DNA of 64,000 nucleotides from Hyphobacterium indicum. Lineage in GTDB: Bacteria; Pseudomonadota; Alphaproteobacteria; Caulobacterales; Maricaulaceae. Below are positions 22,076 through 32,385 of this stretch, one piece after another (position 1 is the first letter of the stretch; each line of letters begins with the position of its first letter). The translations under genes were made by a program, and so were the position numbers. The notes under the pieces are model-generated. The model was not told the origin of the DNA. It worked only from the letters and a program-made list of their open reading frames with translations, and did no database searches. The stretch lies in contig NZ_QBDX01000002.1 in the NCBI RefSeq assembly GCF_003129605.1, forward strand, positions 285,501-349,500. Reading direction: 5' to 3'.

Positions 22076-23488
22076 ATGGCCGAGCAATTTGACCTCATCG
22101 TGATTGGCAGTGGTCCGGGCGGCTATGTGACCGCCATCCGCGCCGCCCAACTCGGCTTGAAGACCGCCATTGTCGAACGCGACCAGCTCGGCGGGATCTG
22201 CCTCAACTGGGGCTGCATTCCGACCAAGGCGCTGCTGCGGACCTCCGAAATCTATCATCTGATGCACCGCGCGGACGAGTTCGGCCTGTCGGCCAAGGCC
22301 ATCTCCTTTGACATCAGGAAGGTGGTCGAGCGCTCACGGAAGGTTGCGGGACGTCTCTCCGGCGGTGTCGGTATGTTGATGAAAAAGAACAAGATCACGG
22401 TGATCGAGGGAACAGCGCGCCTGGAAAAGGGCCGCGCGGCGCCGAAAGTCATCGTGACCGGCAAGGACAAGAAAGACACGGCCTACGAGGCCAAAAACGT
22501 CATCCTCGCCACCGGCGCCCGCGCCCGCACGGTGCCGCAGGCCGGCCTCGAGCCGGACGGCAAGCAGATCTGGACCTATCGCGAAGCCATGGTGCCGGAG
22601 GAGATGCCGAAATCTCTCCTCGTCATCGGATCGGGCGCGATCGGCATCGAGTTCGCCAGCTTCTACAAGACCATGGGCGCGGATGTAACAGTCGTCGAGA
22701 TGATGGACCGCGTCCTGCCGGTCGAGGATGAGGAGATCTCCGCCTTCGCCGCCAAGCAGTTCAAGAAACAGGGGATGAAGCTCATCACTGGCGCGCAGGT
22801 CGAAAAACTCGACAAGGGCGCAAAGTCAGTCAAGGCAGCGATCAAGACAAAGGACGGCAAGAACCAGACCATCGAGGTCGAGAAAGTCATCCTCGCCATC
22901 GGAATCACCGGTAATGTTGAAAATCTCGGCCTCGAGGATCTCGGCGTGAAGGTCGAGCGCGGGCATATCGTCATCGACGGCTATGGTGCGACTAATGTCA
23001 AAGGCCTCTACGCCATCGGTGATGTCGCCGGCCCGCCCTGGCTGGCACACAAGGCCAGCCATGAAGGCATTATCTGCGTCGAGAAGATCGCCGGGAAAAA
23101 TCCACACGCCATGGACACGTCCAACATACCCGGCTGCACCTATTGCCATCCGCAAATCGCCTCCGTCGGCCTGACCGAGGCCAAAGCGAAAGAGGCCGGG
23201 CACGAGGTGAAGGTCGGCCGCTTCCCCTTTGTCGGCAATGGCAAGGCGATTGCCCTGGGCGAGGATCAGGGGCTGATCAAGACGGTGTTCGACGCCAAAA
23301 CCGGTGAATTGCTGGGCGCCCACATGGTCGGGGCCGAAGTCACCGAGCTCATACAGGGCTTCATGGTCGGCAAGGTGCTCGAGACCACCGAGCAGGAATT
23401 GATGCACGCCATCTTCCCGCACCCGACGCTCTCGGAAATGATGCATGAGAGCGTGCTCGATGCCTATGACCGGGTTCTGCACATCTAG
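22076..23488 (+). CDS. lpd: Dihydrolipoyl dehydrogenase (E3)
   Basis: 470 residues. It reoxidises dihydrolipoamide of the pyruvate (and probably 2-oxoglutarate) dehydrogenase complex using FAD and NAD+. N-terminal FAD motif VIGSGPGGYVTAIRAAQLG, redox-active disulfide in GGICLNWGCIPTKAL (about 40-55), NAD-binding VIGSGAIGIEFASFY near 180, FAD motif YAIGDVAGPPWLAHKA near 305, and the active-site His-Glu in HAIFPHPTLSEMMHE at the C-terminus. AAGGAG lies 8 bases upstream of the ATG. It completes the pdhA-pdhB-pdhC set. Confidence 0.97.
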   Translation: MAEQFDLIVIGSGPGGYVTAIRAAQLGLKTAIVERDQLGGICLNWGCIPTKALLRTSEIYHLMHRADEFGLSAKAISFDIRKVVERSRKVAGRLSGGVGMLMKKNKITVIEGTARLEKGRAAPKVIVTGKDKKDTAYEAKNVILATGARARTVPQAGLEPDGKQIWTYREAMVPEEMPKSLLVIGSGAIGIEFASFYKTMGADVTVVEMMDRVLPVEDEEISAFAAKQFKKQGMKLITGAQVEKLDKGAKSVKAAIKTKDGKNQTIEVEKVILAIGITGNVENLGLEDLGVKVERGHIVIDGYGATNVKGLYAIGDVAGPPWLAHKASHEGIICVEKIAGKNPHAMDTSNIPGCTYCHPQIASVGLTEAKAKEAGHEVKVGRFPFVGNGKAIALGEDQGLIKTVFDAKTGELLGAHMVGAEVTELIQGFMVGKVLETTEQELMHAIFPHPTLSEMMHESVLDAYDRVLHI

Positions 23489-23561
23489 TGCATCCGGACG
23501 CGGCCTGACCTGCATCTCTCCAGCATAGGCCCGATAGCGGGACAGCACAGGGAGACAGGTG

Positions 23562-24236
23562 ATGAGAGCGATACTGATGATCACGGCGGCAGCTACCGCA
23601 TTGGCAGGATGCAGCTATTCAGCGCGCGGTCCGGCCGATAACCGCTCGATCGAACGGGCCGGTCTGGTGGCTGCGGGCGACGTCGATTCGACAGGCAGTG
23701 CTGACTATTCCGGCATGTTTGTCGATGCCGGCGGCAATATAGATCGAGACCTGTCGCTCGCCGGTGCCAATGTCGTTTCCGATGCGCGCGTGGGCGGCAA
23801 TCTGAACATTGAAGGCGCGCGGATACGCTTCACCGGAAGCGTGGACGGTGACACCGAGATTGCCGGTGCAACCATGTATCTGAATGGCCGTTTCGGCGGC
23901 CGTATGGAAGTCATGGGGGCTCGCGCCACGATTGACGGAGACGTGCTCGGCGAACTTGACGCCATGGGAGCCCGTTTCAACCTTCTGGGCCATTTCGCGG
24001 CGCCGGTCCGCATTTATGGCGGGGGTGGCGAAGGCCGCAATGGCCGCGTCGTCATCAGCGGTACGCTCGAAGAGGGTGGCTATATCTGTGCCCAGCATGT
24101 TGATTTCCGCAGCAATGCCCGGGTCAACGGCCCGCTGCACATCATTGCCGAACGCCGCCCGGATTGGGACGGCGCCTTTGACTTTGAAGCTCTGGGCACG
24201 CGTGATTGCGAGGATATCCGCCGCAATCGTGGCTGA
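23562..24236 (+). CDS. Secreted bactofilin-like lipoprotein (member A)
   Basis: 224 residues. The lipoprotein signal MRAILMITAAATALAGC has its acylated Cys at residue 17. The body (about 48-170) is a run of beta-helix rungs (LAGANVVSDARVGGNLNIEG, ATMYLNGRFGGRMEVMGA), the style of polymer-forming bactofilin domains, which are normally cytosolic. The C-terminal module contains YICAQHVDF (C176), VNGPLHIIAERRPDW and TRDCED (C206), shared with members B and C. GGGAGA precedes the ATG at 23562, preferred to an adjacent GTG. It lies 73 bases after lpd. Probable location is the periplasmic face of a membrane; function unknown. Confidence 0.82.
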   Translation: MRAILMITAAATALAGCSYSARGPADNRSIERAGLVAAGDVDSTGSADYSGMFVDAGGNIDRDLSLAGANVVSDARVGGNLNIEGARIRFTGSVDGDTEIAGATMYLNGRFGGRMEVMGARATIDGDVLGELDAMGARFNLLGHFAAPVRIYGGGGEGRNGRVVISGTLEEGGYICAQHVDFRSNARVNGPLHIIAERRPDWDGAFDFEALGTRDCEDIRRNRG

Positions 24237-24284
24237 TGCCTCTTGATTTTTATCGCGGAATGAAAAAGGTGAGCAGCGGAAGGG

Positions 24285-24309
24285 GCTCTCTTGAATCCTT
24301 GAAGGGAGC
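24285..24309 (+). promoter_or_regulatory. Hairpin enclosing the ribosome-binding site of member B
   Basis: Bases 24285-24292 (GCTCTCTT) can pair with 24302-24309 (AAGGGAGC), eight pairs including one G-U, around a nine-base loop. The 3' arm holds the Shine-Dalgarno GGGAG of the gene at 24315. An alternative, shorter pairing of GAGC (24271-24274) with GCTC (24285-24288) would free the site. This geometry fits a translational switch, but it could be chance in GC-rich DNA. Confidence 0.35.
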
Positions 24310-24314
24310 TTGAA

Positions 24315-25052
24315 ATGACTAAATCACTCTTTTTGCTGACCGCTTCGGCGGCAGTTTTGCTGGCATCGCCTGTTATGGCGCAGAGCCAGAACGTCTCCAT
24401 GTCCGGCATTACGGTCGACTATTCCGGTGATGTCGCTGGAAATGGTGAATTCTCCGGAGCCACGGTCGACGTCTCCGGCAGCTTCGGTGGTGATCTCGAG
24501 GTTTCCGGTGCCGCCACAGAGATCAATGCCGAAGTCGGAGAAGATCTCGAAGCCAGCGGCGGTGCCGTGGAAATCTCCGGTTCTGTTGGTGGCAATGCCG
24601 AAATCAGTGGCGGGGCCGTGGATATCAATCTGCAGGTCGCGGGCCGGGCCGAGATTTCCGGCGGCGCGGTGGACGTATCTTCCGGCTCGGTCTTTTCCGG
24701 CGATGTCGAGATCGCAGCCGGAGCATTGGAATTTGGCGGACACGCCATGTCCGGGCTCCAGATCCGTTTTGGCGACATGGAATTTTCCGGCCGCGCGGAT
24801 CAGGCCGTCGATCTTGAAGGCAATAACCGCGAGGGCATTTTCCGCCGCCGTGATCGCAGCGAGATCGAGATCAGCGGAATTCTGGACGCTGGCGGTACGA
24901 TCTGCGCCCACGAAGTCCGATTCCTCAATGGCGCTGAAGTCAATGGCCCGCTGACGGTTCTGGCCGATGATGAACCGGACTATGCCGCAGGCTTCGACGC
25001 TTCCAATATCAGCTATGCCCTGCGCGAACGGGAAAGCTGCCGCGGCGATTAA
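24315..25052 (+). CDS. Secreted bactofilin-like protein (member B)
   Basis: 245 residues. Signal peptide MTKSLFLLTASAAVLLASPV with cleavage likely after MA (residue 22), and no lipobox cysteine. Rungs repeat every 17 residues from about 47 to 140, each with SGG/SGA (SGATVDVSGSFGGDLEV, SGGAVEISGSVGGNAEI). The C-terminal module has TICAHEVRFLNGAEVNGPL (C197) and ends ERESCRGD (C242). The two cysteines are 45 residues apart, the same spacing as in member C. GGGAG precedes the ATG, inside a possible hairpin. The 3' end overlaps the convergent AMP-ligase gene by four bases. Function unknown. Confidence 0.82.
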   Translation: MTKSLFLLTASAAVLLASPVMAQSQNVSMSGITVDYSGDVAGNGEFSGATVDVSGSFGGDLEVSGAATEINAEVGEDLEASGGAVEISGSVGGNAEISGGAVDINLQVAGRAEISGGAVDVSSGSVFSGDVEIAAGALEFGGHAMSGLQIRFGDMEFSGRADQAVDLEGNNREGIFRRRDRSEIEISGILDAGGTICAHEVRFLNGAEVNGPLTVLADDEPDYAAGFDASNISYALRERESCRGD

Positions 25053-26815
25053 TCCTCGCCCTTGGCGAGTTTTTCGATCGCCACATAGTTGATCTTGCCA
25101 GTGCCCAGGACGGGGATCTCGGAAACCGGGATCACCCGTTTCGGGATGGCCAGCTCGGCAATTCCGTGGCTGCGGGCAAAGGCCACCATGTCACCACGCT
25201 CGGCATTGGGGTATTCTGTTACGATGACGATCTGCTCGCCTTTCCGGGCGTCAGGCAGGGTGACAGCAGCATGCAGGCAGTCAGGCCACAGTGAAGTCGC
25301 GATATTTTCGACCACCGCCAGCGACACCATTTCGCCGCCGATCTTGGCAAACCGCTTCTGCCGCCCGCGGATCTGCACACAGCCTTCCTCGTCAAAACTG
25401 ACAATATCGCCGGTATCATGCCAACCATCCTCGGGCGGGTGGATGACACCGGGCTGGTCGCTGAAAATATAGCCCTGCATGACATTCGGACCCTTGACGT
25501 GCAGACGGCCTCCATCGGAAATGCCCTCGACCGGCTCCAGCCGTGCCCTCATTCCGGGAATCATGCGGCCGACCGTGCCGGGCTTGTTGCGCTGCGGTTG
25601 ATTGACGGCGATCACCGGTGCTGCTTCCGTAGCGCCATATCCTTCCAGCACCATCAGATCGAATTCGCGCCGCACCATGGTGCGTGTTTCATCCTTCACC
25701 CGTTCGGCACCACAGACGACAAAGCGCAGGGAATCAAAATCGCCCTTGTCCGCGACCCGGGCATACTGGTTCAGGAAGGTGTCGGTTGCGAACAGCACTG
25801 TGGATTTCGTCTTCCGCACACGCTCCATGATGGTTTTGCCTTGCAGCGGGCTGGGGTGCAGAACAGCCGGAATTCCGACAAAAAGCGGCAATAAAAGCCC
25901 GCCTGTCAGACCGAAACTGTGGAAGGTCGGCAGGGAGTTGAAGACAATATCTGTTGGCAGGATGTCCACATGCGCCCGAGCCTGTTCGACATTGGCGACC
26001 AGATTCATATGACTGAGGGCGACTCCCTTGGGATCGCCTTCGGTGCCCGAGGTGAACAGGATGACGGCTGTATCGTCCGGGCTGACGCGCGTGGCCACCA
26101 GGTCCGGGAAGATCGGCCCCAGCACGGCCCTGACCTTGTCGCCCAGGGAAATGTTTTCGCGGACATCCTCAAGATAGATCATTTCATGATCCTGCTTGAG
26201 ATGCCCTTCAAGCTCTTCCAGCCCGCCCAGTTCGATAAATTTGTGCGCCGTGACGATTTTTGTCGCCTGCGCGGCCCGGCAGGCCGCCTTGATCGCTTTT
26301 GCGCCGGCTGTGAAATTCAGCATGGCGGGAATGCGCCCATAGGTATTCAGCGCGAAGAACGCGATTCCCGAACCGGCACCTGTGGGAAGCAGTACGGCGA
26401 CTTTCTCGCCCTTTTCGGTCAGCTTTGCGAGGGCTGAGCCCAAGGCAAACGACGCCCGCAGCATTTCATTATAGTCCAGCTGGCGCCCGTCAGCATCGAT
26501 AATAACGACGGTCTTGCCCCCGACCTTGTTTTTGGCCCGCAACATTGCCTGGAGTACGGACTTTCGGGCGCGAGACAAACGGAAAGGCTCCCCCTCGATC
26601 TGCGGCCAGGAAGAGGGATCAATCGCAGGCGGATTGTCGCCATCGGTTGTCACGTCATCGCCGCCATCCGGGACGATATCCGCGGAGGTCAGTTTGCCGG
26701 GACCGGCGTCATGATTGCGAACCTCATCCAAGCCTTCAGCTGCCGGAATATCCGGACCAGACATGTTGGGGCCAGTGAAAGAGGTGTCGTCCGCGGCTTT
26801 GCGGTCGGTCATCAT
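25049..26815 (-). CDS. Acyl-ACP/acyl-CoA synthetase (AMP-binding)
   Basis: 588 residues. An acidic, low-complexity N-terminal extension (about 1-75, with many Asp, Pro, Gly) precedes the adenylate-forming domain: P-loop ILFTSGTEGDPKGVALSH near 255, YGATEAAPV near 400, GWHDTGDIVSFDEEG near 475 and GRQKRFAKIGGEMVSL near 490, with the C-terminal lysine in PVLGTGKINYVAIEK. It most resembles the ligase part of Aas-type acyl-ACP synthetases, which reacylate lyso-phospholipids; no acyltransferase domain is attached here. GGGGAG precedes the tandem ATGs at 26815/26812. It lies antisense within the bactofilin-like cluster. Confidence 0.85.
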   Translation of the reverse strand: MMTDRKAADDTSFTGPNMSGPDIPAAEGLDEVRNHDAGPGKLTSADIVPDGGDDVTTDGDNPPAIDPSSWPQIEGEPFRLSRARKSVLQAMLRAKNKVGGKTVVIIDADGRQLDYNEMLRASFALGSALAKLTEKGEKVAVLLPTGAGSGIAFFALNTYGRIPAMLNFTAGAKAIKAACRAAQATKIVTAHKFIELGGLEELEGHLKQDHEMIYLEDVRENISLGDKVRAVLGPIFPDLVATRVSPDDTAVILFTSGTEGDPKGVALSHMNLVANVEQARAHVDILPTDIVFNSLPTFHSFGLTGGLLLPLFVGIPAVLHPSPLQGKTIMERVRKTKSTVLFATDTFLNQYARVADKGDFDSLRFVVCGAERVKDETRTMVRREFDLMVLEGYGATEAAPVIAVNQPQRNKPGTVGRMIPGMRARLEPVEGISDGGRLHVKGPNVMQGYIFSDQPGVIHPPEDGWHDTGDIVSFDEEGCVQIRGRQKRFAKIGGEMVSLAVVENIATSLWPDCLHAAVTLPDARKGEQIVIVTEYPNAERGDMVAFARSHGIAELAIPKRVIPVSEIPVLGTGKINYVAIEKLAKGED

Positions 26816-27062
26816 GATCTCCCCGTGTAACGCTTTGGCGCGCTTGTCATATCATTGACGCAGACGTTAAGCGGTGTGCCAGGCGCTGAAAAGCCCGAAA
26901 TTCGCCTCTCCGCACGATTTGCGCAGCATTAGAACTGCCAAAATTTATCGAAAAACGAAAAATCGCTTTCATATCGAATTTCGATATGCTAGATAGGAAT
27001 CACCGCTGGGGAGCGATCAGGACGGACTTATCCTTCGTCCATCGAGTCTGGAGTTTTCGGGC
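26816..27062. other. Divergent regulatory region upstream of bactofilin-like member C
   Basis: 247 bases without a gene, noticeably AT-rich from 26930 to 27000 compared with its surroundings. It holds the start region of the minus-strand AMP ligase on one side and the promoter of the gene at 27063 on the other. It contains the 19-bp palindrome described separately and a second half-like ATCGAAAA at 26947-26954. TATGCTAGATAGGAAT (26985-27000) could serve as an extended -10 region. Confidence 0.55.
26970..26988. promoter_or_regulatory. 19-bp perfect palindrome, likely operator
   Basis: CATATCGAATTTCGATATG: nine-base arms CATATCGAA (26970-26978) and TTCGATATG (26980-26988) around a single T. 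It ends 74 bases before the ATG at 27063 and overlaps a plausible promoter. Two-fold symmetry of this size is typical of a dimeric repressor or activator site; the cognate regulator is not in the window. Confidence 0.55.
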
Positions 27063-27941
27063 ATGAAAAGATTTCTTGCCATAAGCGTGTCTGCGAGCGC
27101 GCTCATCGTGGCTGGTTGCAGCAATAACGCATCCGCCACAGTCCATGTCGACGCTCAAAATCACAATGGCCGTGATGGTGCGCATCATTTTGATCAGGAC
27201 GGCGATGCCAGCCTGATGGCGGGTGATATGCGCATCGCCGGCCGTATTGGCGGTGACTTGTCGGTCATCGGTTCTGATTTGCATGTATCGGCCGGAATTG
27301 GCGGCGACATGTCGCTCGTCGGGTCCGACATCATATTCGAGGGCAGTGTCGGCAGTGAGGCCAATATCGCAGGCAGTGACGTTGCCTGGTCGGGCAATGC
27401 CCGCGGCGATGTCGACATCGCCGGCAGTGACGTGAATTGGTCCGGTACAACGGAACGCAGCCTGTCAATTGCCGGCAGCGATGTCATGATTGACGGCAGG
27501 ATCGGCGAGGATCTCGACATTGCCGGAAGCGATATTGAAGTGTCACGTGACAGCGACGTTGGCGGCAATCTTTCCATGGCAGGCAGCGACCTTGAACTCT
27601 TCGGCTCTGTCGGCGGTAATGCCAGCCTGGCCGGCAGCTCGGCCGAAATAGAAGGTCCTGTTGATGGCCGTCTTATCGCCGTTGCCTATTCGAGGCGCGG
27701 ATGGAGCTGGTCTTCAGGCAACACTCATCAACGCGTCCGTATCAATGCGGCCATAGGAGAGGGCAGTGCAGTATGCGCCCGCCGCGTCGTGATTGGTCCT
27801 GAGATGGTGATAACCGGACAATTGGCCGTTTTTGCCGAAGAGGCTCCGGTGTTCGAAGCCGGGGCATCGCAATCCAGCGTGACATTCGAGGCCATTGACG
27901 GACGCGACTGTAACGACCTTCTGGAACCCTTTGACCGCTAG
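27063..27941 (+). CDS. Secreted bactofilin-like lipoprotein (member C)
   Basis: 292 residues. Lipoprotein signal MKRFLAISVSASALIVAGC with acylated Cys19. After a His/Asn/Asp-rich stretch (about 28-48), eight rungs carry GSD (or GSS) at residues 70, 87, 104, 121, 138, 155, 174 and 191, a 17-residue period with one 19-residue step. The C-terminal module (about 225-292) has SAVCARRVVIGPEMVITGQL (C238), AVFAEEAPVFEAG and GRDCND (C283), equivalent to members A and B. It is 45 bases upstream of member D and probably co-transcribed from the promoter region with the 19-bp palindrome. Function unknown. Confidence 0.84.
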   Translation: MKRFLAISVSASALIVAGCSNNASATVHVDAQNHNGRDGAHHFDQDGDASLMAGDMRIAGRIGGDLSVIGSDLHVSAGIGGDMSLVGSDIIFEGSVGSEANIAGSDVAWSGNARGDVDIAGSDVNWSGTTERSLSIAGSDVMIDGRIGEDLDIAGSDIEVSRDSDVGGNLSMAGSDLELFGSVGGNASLAGSSAEIEGPVDGRLIAVAYSRRGWSWSSGNTHQRVRINAAIGEGSAVCARRVVIGPEMVITGQLAVFAEEAPVFEAGASQSSVTFEAIDGRDCNDLLEPFDR

Positions 27942-27986
27942 TTTTTCTTTGCACTCACTCGTTACGCTTGGGGGCGAACGGAGGTA

Positions 27987-29249
27987 ATGATGCTTATACG
28001 TTCACTGCTGCTCGCGGCCGGACTGGCCGCCACGCTCGCCTCGGGCGCATGGGCCCAGCATTTTGGTGGCCATGTCGAGCTTCGCGATGTTGACCGCGAT
28101 GGCGACCTCAAGGTCATCGCCGGCTCTGCGGAAATCTCAGGGCGGATCGGCGAAGATCTTGCTGTGTTCGGCGGCAGCATTGTCATCGACGCCCAGGTTG
28201 AAGGCGATATCCGCGTGGCCGGCGGAAATGTGACCGTCACTGGAACTGTTGGCGGGGATGCGGAAGTTGCCGGCGGGTCGGTCGAGCTGACAGTCGATAT
28301 CGGTGACAGTGCCGAATTTGCCGGCGGTTATGTCGAATATTCTGGTACAATCGGCGGATCGCTGGATTCGGCTGCTGGCGTGCTGGAGATCGCCGAGGGC
28401 AGTGTCGTCACGGGCCCGGCCGATATGGCCGGTCAATCGATCACGTTGCGGGGCCATTTCCTCGACACCGTCGAGATTCTGGCTCAGGACGTCGTTATAT
28501 CCGGCCGCATAGATGGCGATGTTGAGATCGAGGCCGAGCGCCTCACCATCGAACCCGGAGCCGTCATTTCCGGCCGTCTGGAATATTTCGGCCCGTCCGA
28601 GCCCGAGATTTCGCCTGATGCCACATTGGCAAATGGCGTTGAATACACATACCGCCTGATCGAGCTTGATTGGGACGGCGACCAGTTTAGCGATATTGAT
28701 TTCGATTTCGATATCGTTCCGCCGGCCGAATTCTTTGCGGTATCCGGCGTCGCCTTTTCGCTTCTGCTGGGCCTGTTGGCGCTCGTGATGATGCCGAAAG
28801 GCGTCACCCGTCTGTCGACGAAATTCCGGAAGCACCCGCTTCTGGCTCCGTTGATCGGTCTGTTCCTGCTTCCGATGGGCTGGATCATGCTGATGACCGC
28901 TGGCACGGTGCTCCTGTTCATCTCCGTTGTGGGGATCGTACTGATACCCTTCTGGTGGGTTTTCGGCATATTCCTGCTCTTGCTGGCCTATCCACTCGGG
29001 GCGATTGCCGTCGGCGACTGTATTTTCAATCGCGCCGGAAAGCCCAATCCCGGCCTGGGAATGCGGCTTCTGGGGATGGCCGTTGTCCTGATCCTGTCAG
29101 CTGCGCTCTGGATATTGCCGCCTCTGGCTGTGATTGCGTCGCTGATCCTGTCCTGGATCGGCCTTGGGTCCTGGATGCTGGCCGCTTTTGGTCGCAAGGA
29201 CGATAATGGCGGCAGCCCGGCTGCCGCATCCGCCGATACTTCTGTCTAG
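27987..29249 (+). CDS. Bactofilin-like domain fused to a multi-pass membrane domain (member D)
   Basis: 420 residues. Signal peptide (1-23, ending GAWA), then beta-helix rungs (about 38-190: AGSAEISGRIGEDLAVFGGS, AGGNVTVTGTVGGDAEVAGG) and a short equivalent of the family's C-terminal module (GAVISGRLEYFGPSEPEI) without cysteines. A membrane domain follows (about 245-405) with five or six hydrophobic segments and a charged tail. GGAGG precedes the tandem ATGs. Its membrane domain may anchor or transport something for the lipoprotein and secreted members; this is inference. It is the last gene before a strong hairpin. Confidence 0.84.
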   Translation: MMLIRSLLLAAGLAATLASGAWAQHFGGHVELRDVDRDGDLKVIAGSAEISGRIGEDLAVFGGSIVIDAQVEGDIRVAGGNVTVTGTVGGDAEVAGGSVELTVDIGDSAEFAGGYVEYSGTIGGSLDSAAGVLEIAEGSVVTGPADMAGQSITLRGHFLDTVEILAQDVVISGRIDGDVEIEAERLTIEPGAVISGRLEYFGPSEPEISPDATLANGVEYTYRLIELDWDGDQFSDIDFDFDIVPPAEFFAVSGVAFSLLLGLLALVMMPKGVTRLSTKFRKHPLLAPLIGLFLLPMGWIMLMTAGTVLLFISVVGIVLIPFWWVFGIFLLLLAYPLGAIAVGDCIFNRAGKPNPGLGMRLLGMAVVLILSAALWILPPLAVIASLILSWIGLGSWMLAAFGRKDDNGGSPAAASADTSV

Positions 29250-29263
29250 GCGCTGAACACAAA

Positions 29264-29292
29264 TTGCGGGCGGTGCTTGAAGCCGCCCGCAA
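29264..29292 (+). terminator. Hairpin closing the bactofilin-like operon
   Basis: Perfect ten-base arms TTGCGGGCGG (29264-29273) and CCGCCCGCAA (29283-29292) around a nine-base loop, 15 bases after the stop of member D and 21 bases before lipA. There is no T-run after it, so it may be a pause or 3'-end stabiliser rather than a classic intrinsic terminator. Confidence 0.6.
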
Positions 29293-29313
29293 CTAGCGCC
29301 ATGTTGCGCCGCA

Positions 29314-30279
29314 ATGGCCAATCTTATCGACACCCTCGCGGAGACCCCGCGGCCCCGGCATCCGGAAAAGCAGCATCGCCCGGACAATCCGGTCCTGCGC
29401 AAGCCGGACTGGATCCGTGTCAAGGCACCGGTTGGCGGCGAGTATGCTGAAACCCGCAATATCGTGAAAGATAACAATCTGATCACGGTCTGCGAGGAAG
29501 CCGGATGCCCGAATATCGGTGAATGCTGGACCCAGAAACATGCCACATTCATGATTCTGGGGGACACCTGCACCCGCGCCTGTGCCTTCTGCAATGTAAA
29601 AACCGGCCTACCGTCGCCGGTCGATCATGATGAGGCCAATCGCATCGGCGACGCGGTCGTCAAGATGGGGCTCAAACACGTCGTCATCACTTCCGTGGAT
29701 CGCGATGATCTGGAAGATGGCGGTGCGCAACATTTCGTCGATGTGATCAAGGCCATTCGCGCGGCATCGCCCGGGACCACCATTGAAATCCTTACGCCGG
29801 ATTTCCTCCGTAAGGACGGCGCGATCAATACGGTGATCGATGCCCGTCCGGACGTCTTCAATCACAATTTGGAAACGGTGCCTCGGCTCTATCTCTCTAT
29901 TCGGCCCGGCGCCCGCTATTACCACTCCCTGCGCCTCCTTGAGCAGGTGAAAGAACGCGATCCGTCCCAGTTCACAAAGTCCGGCCTGATGGTTGGCCTC
30001 GGCGAGAGCAAGGAGGAGGTCATGCAGGTGATGGATGATATGCGCTCGGCCGGAATCGATTTCCTGACCATTGGCCAGTATCTCCAACCCACGCGCAAGC
30101 ATGCTTCGGTTCAGCGTTTTGTCGAACCGCAGGAATTCAAGGCCTATGAGACCATTGCCCGGGCCAAGGGCTTCCTGATGGTCTCGGCAACACCACTGAC
30201 GCGCTCCAGCTATCATGCCGGCGATGATTTCGTGCGCCTTCGTGCGGCACGTGACGCTTCGCTCGCTGGCGGCAGATGA
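29314..30279 (+). CDS. lipA: Lipoyl synthase
   Basis: 321 residues. A radical-SAM enzyme that inserts two sulfurs into octanoyl-lysine on lipoyl domains such as those of PdhB and PdhC. Both clusters are present: auxiliary cysteines C60, C65 and C71 ([15 protein letters not shown]) and the radical-SAM CxxxCxxC at C86, C90 and C93 ([10 protein letters not shown]), plus the conserved RSSYHA serine near the C-terminus. No Shine-Dalgarno is obvious at the ATG. The next gene overlaps by ATGA. Confidence 0.97.
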
Positions 30280-30764: not shown

Positions 30765-31238
30765 CAATTCGAGCGCCTGCTTTACCGACGCCTGCCGCAC
30801 AACGTCGCGGCCGATATCACCGAATCTCTGTTCCAGTGTCTCGATGAGGCCGGACGAGGTCGCCAGACCAAACCAGACGAGGCCGGCCGGTTTTACATCA
30901 CTCCCGCCAGGGCCCGCGATTCCGGTAATTGAAACGGCCACATCTGCGCCCGATGCCGACAATGCGCCGAGCGCCATTTCCCGGGCAACAGCTTCGGACA
31001 CCGCACCGAATTCCGCAATCAAATCCGGGTCCACTCCGAGACTGTCGATCTTTGCCGTATTTGAATAGGTAATATAGCCGCGGTCATAAGCGTCAGATGA
31101 TCCCGGAATGCGCGTGATAGCCCCCCCGACCAGCCCGCCGGTACAGCTTTCCGCCGTCGCAAGTCGCAGCTTTCGCGCTGAAGCGGTTTCAACAACACGA
31201 AAGGCCAGGGCGCTTATTTCAGCTTCGACATCATGCAT
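30738..31238 (-). CDS. CinA-type nicotinamide-nucleotide amidohydrolase
   Basis: 166 residues, the stand-alone PncC/CinA C-terminal domain. The motifs LRLATAESCTGGLVGGAITR (about 25-44), GYITYSNTAK, AVSEAVAREMALGA and SITGIAGPGGSDVKPAGLVW are all typical. It deamidates nicotinamide mononucleotide to nicotinate mononucleotide, salvaging NAD breakdown products. The start overlaps the end of ispDF by eight bases, so it is probably translated from the same message. Confidence 0.93.
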   Translation of the reverse strand: MHDVEAEISALAFRVVETASARKLRLATAESCTGGLVGGAITRIPGSSDAYDRGYITYSNTAKIDSLGVDPDLIAEFGAVSEAVAREMALGALSASGADVAVSITGIAGPGGSDVKPAGLVWFGLATSSGLIETLEQRFGDIGRDVVRQASVKQALELLLSGVGRS

Positions 31239-32385
31239 GTCGTTTCACCGTTACGATCGCCTGCGCGGCAATGCCTTCGCCGCGCCCCGTGAAGCCCAGA
31301 CCTTCCGTGGTAGTGGCTTTGATATTCACAGAGGCGGTCGGCAAGCCCAGCAATTCTGCGACTCTTTCCTGCATGGCCGCACGAAAGGGGCCGATCCTGG
31401 GTTGCTCACAGATCAAAGTGATATCCGCATGTAACACCTGCGCGCCCACCTTGTGGAGCAGTGCCAGCGCATGTTCGACAAAAGCCGAAGATGCTGCGCC
31501 TTTCCATTGCGGATCAGAGGGCGGAAAATGTTGACCGATATCGCCCGCGCAGATGGTGCCGAGCAGGGCGTCGACCAGGGCATGCAGGCCGGCATCCGCA
31601 TCAGAATGCCCGATCAGCTCGAATTCACAGGGGATTTCCACACCGCAGAGCCAAACGCCCTGTCCGGGACCCAGGCGATGAACATCAAATCCGGACCCGC
31701 TGACGGTGGTCATACTATCACCTGTTCTGACTGGCATCTGAAAGTCTTCGGGAAAGGTGAGTTTGATATTCGCCGGTTCGCCGTCCACGATTTTCACAGG
31801 GATGCCGGCGGCGCGCATCAGGCTGGCTTCATCGGGAAAGTCCCGGTTGGACTCTCTTGCCTCGAAAGCGCCGAGCAGCGACTGGAACTGAAACGCCTGC
31901 GGAGTCTGTACGCGCACCAACAGATTACGATCCACGCTGTCACCGATAGCATCCTGCTCTCTGGTGAAAGTCGCATCTGTGACAGGCAAACCCGGTACGG
32001 CTGCCTCTGACCCAGCCAGAGCATCACACAGGCGTTGTATCAAATCATGTGAAACGAAAGGGCGGGCGGCATCGTGAATCAGAACATGATCAGGTGCGTG
32101 ATCGGCTAGCGCCAGTAACCCCCTATGGACTGACTGGTTTCTCGTAGTCCCACCAAAACAATGCATTGCACCGATATATTCATTTGCCAGATCAAAATAC
32201 GCCTGATCGTCAGGATGGATCACCACACAGACCGTATCAATGGCGGGATGCGTATGAAATGCCCGCAGCGTCTGCGCCAGCACTGACTCTCCGCCCATGT
32301 CGCGATATTGCTTCGGCAGGCCACCGCCGGCCCGGTGTCCACGGCCGGCGGCAACGATCAGGGCGGCGGTTGTGGTCTGTGACAC
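31231..32385 (-). CDS. ispDF: Bifunctional IspD/IspF, MEP isoprenoid pathway
   Basis: 384 residues. The N-terminal IspD half (1-225) has the nucleotidyltransferase motif IVAAGRGHRAGGGLPKQY and VLIHDAARPFV and forms CDP-methylerythritol. The C-terminal IspF half (about 228-384) has the metal-binding SGFDVHRLGPGQ and LIGHSDADAGLHALVDALLG and forms methylerythritol cyclodiphosphate. Fusion of these non-consecutive enzymes is a known alphaproteobacterial feature. It is divergent from dusB across 84 bases. Confidence 0.97.
   Translation of the reverse strand: MSQTTTAALIVAAGRGHRAGGGLPKQYRDMGGESVLAQTLRAFHTHPAIDTVCVVIHPDDQAYFDLANEYIGAMHCFGGTTRNQSVHRGLLALADHAPDHVLIHDAARPFVSHDLIQRLCDALAGSEAAVPGLPVTDATFTREQDAIGDSVDRNLLVRVQTPQAFQFQSLLGAFEARESNRDFPDEASLMRAAGIPVKIVDGEPANIKLTFPEDFQMPVRTGDSMTTVSGSGFDVHRLGPGQGVWLCGVEIPCEFELIGHSDADAGLHALVDALLGTICAGDIGQHFPPSDPQWKGAASSAFVEHALALLHKVGAQVLHADITLICEQPRIGPFRAAMQERVAELLGLPTASVNIKATTTEGLGFTGRGEGIAAQAIVTVKRHA

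What the first reader, a model, noticed from the sequence alone, without database searches (positions are those of the whole stretch)
23562..29249. Cluster of four secreted bactofilin-like beta-helix proteins with complementary anchoring
Seen: four consecutive plus-strand genes (23562, 24315, 27063, 27987) encode proteins with repeating 17-residue rungs. All carry export signals: two lipoboxes, one plain signal peptide, one signal peptide plus a multi-helix membrane domain. Known: bactofilins are usually cytosolic polymers shaping the cell. Inference: the set may form an extracytoplasmic polymer, with lipoproteins as attachment points and member D as base or conduit, possibly an envelope scaffold. 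No characterised system with this composition comes to mind.
Basis: partly seen in the sequence, partly recalled or inferred. Interest (0 to 1): 0.72.

Follow-up and report, generated by a model that had tools for sequence, protein, structure and literature searches.

The report
Exported bactofilin-like beta-helix envelope gene set
A bacterium related to Maricaulis carries four related proteins that look like the cell's internal scaffold protein bactofilin but appear to be exported into the cell envelope, and two of them share a DNA control site with a small membrane protein, which points to an undescribed envelope system.

Summary
Four plus-strand genes (A 23562, B 24315, C 27063, D 27987) encode exported-looking proteins with 17-residue beta-helix rungs, but a minus-strand acyl-ACP-ligase gene (25049-26815) lies between B and C. 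AlphaFold models of C and D are beta-helices; D's last rungs overlay Thermus bactofilin (1.6 A, 96 of 101 residues). Only D passes the Pfam bactofilin cut-off. A, B and C are homologues of D's ectodomain without its membrane domain. D follows lpd in 18 of 18 named loci, and strong A/B and C matches were found only in genomes with a close D. New here: the palindrome TATCGANNNTCGATA has two exact sites in the whole genome, at the C-D promoter and at a 60-aa Imm_superinfect gene; this pairing recurs across the family. Best reading: a repressor-controlled periplasmic beta-helix module, D in the inner membrane, A and C probable outer-membrane lipoproteins. Polymer, strut or sensor is untested, and C has lost its rungs in two genomes. 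It should not be filed as a bactofilin: by sequence it is exported, and A-C fail the cut-off. New variant of a known kind.

The parts
23562..24236 (+). Gene A, 224 aa: lipoprotein signal (Cys17), about ten 17-residue rungs, two-Cys tail (Cys176, Cys216)
   Evidence: PF04519 20.8 bits, below cut-off; both Cys invariant in the 18 A/B rows aligned
24315..25052 (+). Gene B, 245 aa: plain signal peptide, beta-helix rungs, same two-Cys tail; paralogue of A
   Evidence: no PF04519 match; A and B fall in one AB clade, support 100/99
26972..26986 (.). Operator-like palindrome TATCGAATTTCGATA, starting 91 bp before the C start; one of two exact TATCGANNNTCGATA sites in the genome
26946..26960 (+). Second, degenerate copy (TATCGAAAAACGAAA, one mismatch to TATCGNNNNNCGATA)
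   Evidence: this relaxed pattern is not above chance in the window (3 matches against 1.5 expected), so weak
27004..27015 (+). CGCT-GGGG-AGCG hairpin in the C leader
   Evidence: GGGG flanked by complementary arms in the 12 Maricaulis leaders printed, by eye also in window, L040, L111, L131, L133; by eye absent from the tandem-site leaders; no Rfam match
27063..27941 (+). Gene C, 292 aa: lipoprotein (Cys19), beta-helix, two-Cys tail (Cys238, Cys283)
   Evidence: three Cys invariant in the 17 full-length rows aligned; model
27987..29249 (+). Gene D, 420 aa: signal peptide (about 1-23), beta-helix ectodomain (24-222), helical membrane domain (247-401)
   Evidence: (PF04519 30.4 bits, above cut-off)
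25049..26815 (-). Intervening gene: AMP-binding enzyme like the acyl-ACP ligase half of Aas-type enzymes; a neighbour, not counted as part of the system
   Evidence: best profile PRK06814, positions 624-1131 of 1140, 690.9 bits, below its whole-protein cut-off of 1349; relative at E<=1e-100 in 113 of 120 genomes of the order

Best explanation
An envelope module of periplasmic beta-helix proteins built around D. Shown by computation: A, B, C and D share one ancestral beta-helix ectodomain; D adds a C-terminal membrane domain; A and C carry a lipobox; full-length A, B and C carry a conserved cysteine pair; C and D lie in tandem behind a palindrome that also stands at an Imm_superinfect gene. Inferred: D sits in the inner membrane with its beta-helix in the periplasm (the Lys/Arg-rich stretches of the membrane domain would then be cytoplasmic), A and C reach the outer membrane (Ser, not Asp, after the lipobox Cys; rule recalled), B is soluble, and the cysteines form a disulfide. 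An unidentified repressor keeps C-D and the small Imm-like protein low; on an envelope signal both are made. The beta-helices of D and its partners then associate through their open ends or sides and form a scaffold or tether in the periplasm, while the Imm-like protein acts in the inner membrane. The association step and the signal are conjecture.
For: Profile alignments join A/B with C (E 3.9e-38) and C with the D ectodomain including its end cap (E 7e-38). AB and D are each one clade at 100/99 in a 54-row tree. D lies downstream of lpd in 18 of 18 named loci, full-length C in 16 of 18, A or B in 15 of 18. In 120 genomes of the order, strong A/B matches (11 genomes, E<1e-70) and C matches (13, E<1e-48) all fall among the 14 genomes with a close D. 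In 59 genomes of the family, 23 have a close D. Exact operator sites there number 62 against 9 for the reversed control pattern; of the 53 in D+ genomes, 30 lie at the C-D (or D) promoter and 19 at Imm. Imm has a site of at least 11 of 12 in 22 of 22 D+ genomes that carry it. In seven A/B upstream stretches examined the best is 6-8 of 12.
Against: No contact, polymer, location or expression was measured. No signal-peptide or topology predictor was run. The regulator is unknown; PadR does not track with the site. One D- genome (G133) also has the operator at Imm, so the Imm link may predate D. A and B lack the operator, so the four genes are not one regulon. D alone or D with one partner is enough in many genomes. 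In two genomes C has lost its beta-helix: a 109-aa C in L022 (same gene as L044) keeps lipobox and Cys pair, and a C of about 51 aa in G149, of the window's own genus, keeps the lipobox and only the last Cys (a draft of about 170 contigs, so a repeat collapse in assembly is possible). So C's rungs are not always needed. Relatedness of the genomes inflates all counts.
Confidence: 0.42

Rival explanations
1. A true periplasmic bactofilin: the four proteins co-polymerise end to end into non-polar filaments, with lipoproteins and D as membrane attachment points.
For: D passes PF04519; D residues 115-221 overlay TtBac filament subunit 6rib_A at 1.6 A over 96 of 101 residues, Z 10.2.
Against: A-C are below or without the Pfam cut-off. 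Many other beta-helix proteins match D and C with higher Z (up to 17.9 and 18.2), so the fold does not imply polymerisation. D's beta-helix is followed by a membrane domain and C's by a probable disulfide tail, which may cap one end. C lacks its rungs in two genomes.
Confidence: 0.2
2. An envelope-stress sensor or response set functionally like PSP/Lia 'Toastrack' partners: D senses periplasmic or membrane damage and C, A, B modulate it.
For: Operator shared with a small membrane protein. Toastrack proteins are also single-stranded right-handed beta-helices coupled to TM domains (PMC11237479, passages). By eye, some distant D-like genes stand beside stress-type genes such as UspA-like and DnaJ-like ORFs. 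A lost beta-helix in C fits a modulator better than a strut.
Against: No DUF4097, PspC, HAAS or LiaI family was listed for the four proteins at E<=1. The paper argues that Toastrack is intracellular, whereas these look exported. PadR, a usual regulator of such operons, does not track with the site.
Confidence: 0.21
3. A phage-entry barrier: Imm-like protein plus surface beta-helix lipoproteins block adsorption or DNA entry.
For: The co-regulated gene is PF14373 Imm_superinfect, 69.3 bits against a cut-off of 27.9; Imm occurs in 22 of 23 D+ and 7 of 36 D- genomes of the family sample.
Against: The T4 Imm role (recalled) need not apply to chromosomal copies; one narrow literature search gave a single paper, on T4-like phage infection of Campylobacter, seen in the listing only. 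The set sits at a fixed housekeeping locus. No PADLOC search was run.
Confidence: 0.08
4. D is part of a transport or cargo machine in which the beta-helix docks on a membrane partner, as NosD does on NosFY.
For: NosDFY (7o0y) is among C's structural matches, Z 16.3, 3.3 A over 225 residues; D has a conserved GD-IFNR stretch in its membrane domain.
Against: I saw no transporter gene between lpd and lipA (by eye); the match is to a common fold.
Confidence: 0.07

Closest known systems
Bactofilins (PF04519; BacA of Caulobacter/Asticcacaulis, TtBac 6rib)
   Same: Beta-helix of 17-residue rungs; D passes the Pfam cut-off and its last rungs overlay 6rib_A at 1.6 A
   Different: Exported by sequence, lipidated or membrane-anchored at the C terminus; longer beta-helix; A-C below cut-off or unmatched; the genome has a separate canonical bactofilin at C2:181675-181959 (95.7 bits)
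Bactofilins with N-terminal transmembrane helices (Proteus CcmA; about 3.2% of bactofilin-domain proteins, PMC12448750, passages)
   Same: Bactofilin domain tied to a membrane by helices
   Different: There the helices precede the domain; in D a signal peptide precedes it and the membrane domain follows it, so the beta-helix should face the periplasm
Toastrack domain proteins of PSP/Lia systems (PMC11237479, passages)
   Different: No DUF4097/DUF2154/DUF2807 match listed; argued there to be intracellular
PapS-porin complex of Rhodospirillum rubrum (PMC11369160, passages)
   Same: A lipoprotein system that organises an alphaproteobacterial envelope from the periplasmic side
   Different: PapS has an OmpA-like peptidoglycan-binding domain; no sequence relation was looked for

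Membership tests
Bactofilin (PF04519), gene D | Sequence match above the Pfam gathering score | tested here: met
   30.4 bits against 27.9; of five D-type relatives scanned, L034 and L048 pass, while L036, L037 and L049 list no PF04519 match at E<=0.1
Bactofilin (PF04519), genes A, B, C | Sequence match above the Pfam gathering score | tested here: not met
   A 20.8, C 21.6, B no match
Bactofilin | Right-handed beta-helix core of 17-residue rungs | tested here: met
   Models of D and C. Handedness is inferred: D fits HMW1-type helices at about 3 A but LpxD, LpxA and GlmU only at over 10 A, though with Z up to 15.7. A and B rest on homology and periodicity
Bactofilin (gene D) | Superposition on a solved bactofilin | tested here: met
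   D residues 115-221 on 6rib_A: Z 10.2, 1.6 A, 96 aligned of 101; by Foldseek alone rank 10, E 1.4, probability 0.44
Bactofilin (gene C) | Superposition on a solved bactofilin | tested here: inconclusive
   6rib is not among the 50 rows shown for C, which does not exclude it
Bactofilin | Cytoplasmic protein on the inner face of the membrane, short N-terminal membrane-targeting peptide | tested here: not met
   All four begin with a signal peptide or lipobox; lipobox Cys invariant in the 17 full-length C rows. Read from sequence, not measured
Bactofilin | Cofactor-free self-polymerisation into non-polar filaments | not testable with these tools
   Needs purified protein and EM
Toastrack / PSP partner | DUF4097, DUF2154, DUF2807, PspC or HAAS profile match | tested here: not met
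   None listed at E<=1 for the four proteins (HMMER's filters drop most matches above about 0.1)
Imm_superinfect (co-regulated 60-aa gene, outside the window) | PF14373 above its cut-off | tested here: met
   69.3 bits against 27.9
Imm_superinfect | Blocks entry of superinfecting phage DNA | not testable with these tools
   Needs a phage plating test

The most novel reading that the evidence does not exclude
The set is an inducible trans-periplasmic beta-solenoid bridge: D rises from the inner membrane, lipoproteins C and A hang from the outer membrane, and their beta-helices stack end to end (B as a spacer) to tie or space the two membranes, switched on together with an Imm-like inner-membrane protein when the envelope is attacked. 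That would be a bactofilin-type solenoid moved outside the inner membrane, with lengths adjusted by gain or loss of whole 17-residue rungs.
Probability: 0.12. Interest if true: 0.8.

Novelty: new variant of a known kind. Interest (0 to 1): 0.52.

Why it matters
Bactofilins are studied as cytoplasmic scaffolds, for example for stalk growth in Asticcacaulis (PMC12364344, passages). A co-inherited set of exported relatives, with lipid and membrane anchors and a control site of its own, gives a testable case of that solenoid being used on the periplasmic side. The two-target operator gives a direct handle on what the system responds to, and ties it to a chromosomal Imm_superinfect protein whose role I found nothing about (one narrow search).

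Tried and rejected
Intervening AMP-ligase as a functional partner (for example lipid repair after lipoprotein acylation): set aside, because a relative (E<=1e-100) is in 113 of 120 genomes of the order, most without D, and four genomes with a close D (G029, G039, G058, G078) are among the seven without it.

PadR as the regulator of the palindrome: not supported. PadR hits occur in 48 of 59 genomes, but G024, G133, G135, G149, G155 and G157 have exact sites and no PadR hit. Six PadR loci were read; no close copy of the site stands at them.

The RtrC motif paper (PMC9648850, passages) describes a pseudo-palindromic motif, but the passages give no letters, so no comparison was possible. Listeria PadR paper (PMC6624303, passages): no operator sequence in the passages.

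Foldseek alone: no PDB match with E<=0.001 for either model; VIA-align was needed. Bactofilin was not in the rows shown for C. Rfam: no match in 23300-29500. Sigma-70 scan: 0 promoter-like sites, uninformative for this organism.

A link of D-like genes with pyruvate-dehydrogenase-type genes in distant genomes (L037, L147): seen twice only, not pursued.

Literature: searches listed no paper on periplasmic, secreted, extracellular or lipoprotein bactofilins as a system (five of the six phrases had zero occurrences in the 14 papers found; the sixth, 'bactofilin domain', brought them in). Searches showed 20 of 1,691 and 25 of 500 papers. 'Bactofilin' with 'Maricaulis' gave one paper, seen in the listing only. 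The library lacks most subscription papers. The halofilin paper (PMC11459167) is not held; I know it only from a reference list and recall.

Full report
1. What is there. The window carries four plus-strand ORFs at 23562-24236 (A, 224 aa), 24315-25052 (B, 245 aa), 27063-27941 (C, 292 aa) and 27987-29249 (D, 420 aa). They lie between lpd (22076-23488) and lipA (29314-30279); these names are by recognition of the products. The four are not consecutive: a 588-aa gene on the minus strand (25049-26815) separates A-B from C-D. It is an AMP-binding enzyme (PF00501) whose best NCBIfam line is the acyl-ACP-ligase half of an Aas-type acyltransferase (positions 624-1131 of 1140, 690.9 bits, below that model's whole-protein cut-off of 1349). 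A relative at E<=1e-100 is in 113 of 120 genomes of the order, so I treat it as a housekeeping neighbour.

2. Repeats and fold. In the beta-helix stretch of all four proteins lag 17 is the strongest of lags 5-30; 0 of 2000 shuffles reach it by hydropathy in any of the four, and 0 of 2000 by residue identity except A (2 of 2000). AlphaFold models of C (mean pLDDT 84.8) and D (82.5, pTM 0.53) show strands every 17 residues. In VIA-align, D's ectodomain fits beta-helix proteins such as HMW1 (2odl, Z 17.9, 2.6 A, 201 residues), while LpxD, LpxA and GlmU fit only at more than 10 A, though with Z up to 15.7; the handedness of both groups (right for HMW1, left for the others) is recalled. D residues 115-221 fit the Thermus bactofilin filament subunit 6rib_A with Z 10.2, 1.6 A over 96 of its 101 residues. 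C fits other beta-helix proteins over most of its length (3p4g, Z 18.2, 2.8 A, 234 residues). Foldseek alone gave nothing at E<=0.001. A and B were not modelled.

3. Anchors and tail. Read from sequence: A and C have lipoprotein signals (Cys17, Cys19), with Ser after the Cys, which by the E. coli rule (recalled) favours the outer membrane. B has a plain signal peptide. D has a signal peptide and, after the beta-helix, long helices at 247-268, 286-311, 314-347, 357-376 and 378-401, with a shorter one at 270-282. The Lys/Arg-rich stretches around residues 269-284 and 349-360 would be cytoplasmic if the beta-helix is periplasmic (inference). A, B and C share a tail with two cysteines, invariant in the 18 A/B rows and 17 full-length C rows aligned; being exported, they probably form a disulfide (inference).

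4. Origin. hhalign joins A/B to C (E 3.9e-38) and C to the D ectodomain through its end cap (E 7e-38). In a tree of 54 rows (D rows cut to the first 55%) AB and D are each one clade at 100/99, while C (17 rows) is not resolved as one; long branches are present, so deep joins are unsure. Length differences come in rung-sized steps: 17 columns in D (absent from 7 of the 15 rows, the window among them) and 36 columns, about two rungs, in C (absent from the 8 Maricaulis-type rows of 13).

5. Distribution. A scan of named genomes returned 18 loci: Maricaulis, Oceanicaulis, Glycocaulis, Marinicauda, unnamed Maricaulaceae and a close relative of the window, MAG RI_462. D follows lpd in 18 of 18; full-length C is in 16 of 18 (L046 has none; L044 has only a short one); A or B is in 15 of 18 (not L043, L047, L048); the AMP-ligase gene lies in the cluster in 12 of 18. 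Of 120 genomes of the order, 14 have a close D (E<=1e-150), and all strong A/B matches (11 genomes, E<1e-70) and C matches (13, E<1e-48) are among these 14. Eight more have only distant D-like proteins, on which the A/B and C profiles also ring weakly; the C profile rings once elsewhere (G033, E 1e-6, a 400-aa frame, not looked at). A profile of the D membrane domain finds 9 of 398 genomes of the phylum at E<=1e-6, the window's included. One of them (L145) again has a D-like gene between lpd and lipA.

6. C without rungs. In L022 (the same gene as in L044) C is 109 aa: lipobox, a short tether, and the Cys-pair tail. In G149, of the window's genus, C is about 51 aa: lipobox and the last Cys only, followed by a normal D that runs off the contig. 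That genome is a draft in about 170 contigs, so an assembly collapse of the repeat is possible. If real, C's rungs are dispensable in some strains, which counts against a C-D strut.

7. The operator. Upstream of C in the window and its relatives is a palindrome, core TATCGANNNTCGATA. It has two exact sites in the window's genome and the reversed control pattern none: one at 26972-26986, starting 91 bp before the C start, and one just before a 60-aa gene that matches PF14373 Imm_superinfect (69.3 bits, cut-off 27.9). In 59 genomes of the family there are 62 exact sites against 9 for the control pattern. Twenty-three genomes have a close D (E<=1e-80); the other 36 are called D-, one of them (G073) with a distant D-like match. 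Of the 53 exact sites in D+ genomes, 30 lie at the C-D (or D) promoter in 18 genomes (12 with two tandem copies), 19 at Imm, and 4 elsewhere; the 9 in D- genomes lie in 6 genomes, none of them at Imm. The other five D+ genomes have near-matches before C: four with 11 of 12, G125 with two of 10 of 12. Imm is in 22 of 23 D+ genomes (the exception, G157, is 88% complete) and in 7 of 36 D- genomes; none of 14 control genomes rings. The Imm promoter has a site of at least 11 of 12 in 22 of 22 D+ cases. Among the 7 D- cases one has it (G133, 11 of 12); in the other six the best over the 601 bp fetched is 8 of 12 (for L155 and L159 my script did not recognise the Imm frame, so the whole stretch was scanned). 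The second Imm copies of two D+ genomes (G127, G044) have no site (best 8 of 12). In 4000 random 170-bp windows of eight loci, which include true sites, 42 reach 11 or more. In seven stretches upstream of A/B the best is 6 to 8 of 12: A and B seem to be outside this regulon. At Imm the site follows a TTGC-like element and a TA-rich hexamer and overlaps the likely start of transcription, which suggests a repressor (inference, by eye). Relatedness of the genomes inflates all these counts.

8. How it may work. See Best explanation. Shown: common descent, co-location, shared palindrome. Inferred: topology, lipidation, disulfide, repression. Conjectured: contact between the beta-helices, and the inducing signal.

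9. Known kinds. PMC12448750 (passages) says that about 3.2% of bactofilin-domain proteins have N-terminal transmembrane helices; D differs in having the membrane domain after the beta-helix. PMC12364344 (passages) gives the shared features of studied bactofilins: a beta-helical core with variable ends, and self-polymerisation. PMC11237479 (passages) describes Toastrack beta-helices of stress systems and argues that they are intracellular. Since the cytoplasmic-location criterion is not met (by sequence) and A-C fail the Pfam cut-off, the set should be called bactofilin-like, not bactofilin.

10. Verdict.

Noticed in passing
27004-27015 and the leaders of C in L042, L049-L057: A short CGCT-GGGG-AGCG hairpin sits between the operator and the C start, with paired changes such as ATGCT/AGCAT in L029. 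It may be a translational control element.
   Followed up: partly
L087 and L088 (genome G133): In a D- genome the same palindrome stands before an SppA-like signal-peptide-peptidase ORF (by eye) and another membrane-protein-like ORF, besides a near-match at Imm, so the unknown regulator may be a wider envelope regulator.
   Followed up: no
L022:7339-7668 and L111 (genome G149) after 2026: Two C genes that lost their beta-helix rungs but keep the lipobox, one with the Cys pair and one with only the last Cys.
   Followed up: partly
L037 and L147: Distant D-like genes near an acyl-ligase-like gene and pyruvate-dehydrogenase-type genes in two unrelated genomes.
   Followed up: no
outside the window, G000:C2:181675-181959: The genome's own canonical bactofilin (PF04519, 95.7 bits), separate from this cluster.
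   Followed up: no
31231-32385: IspD and IspF appear fused in one 384-aa ORF (by eye).
   Followed up: no
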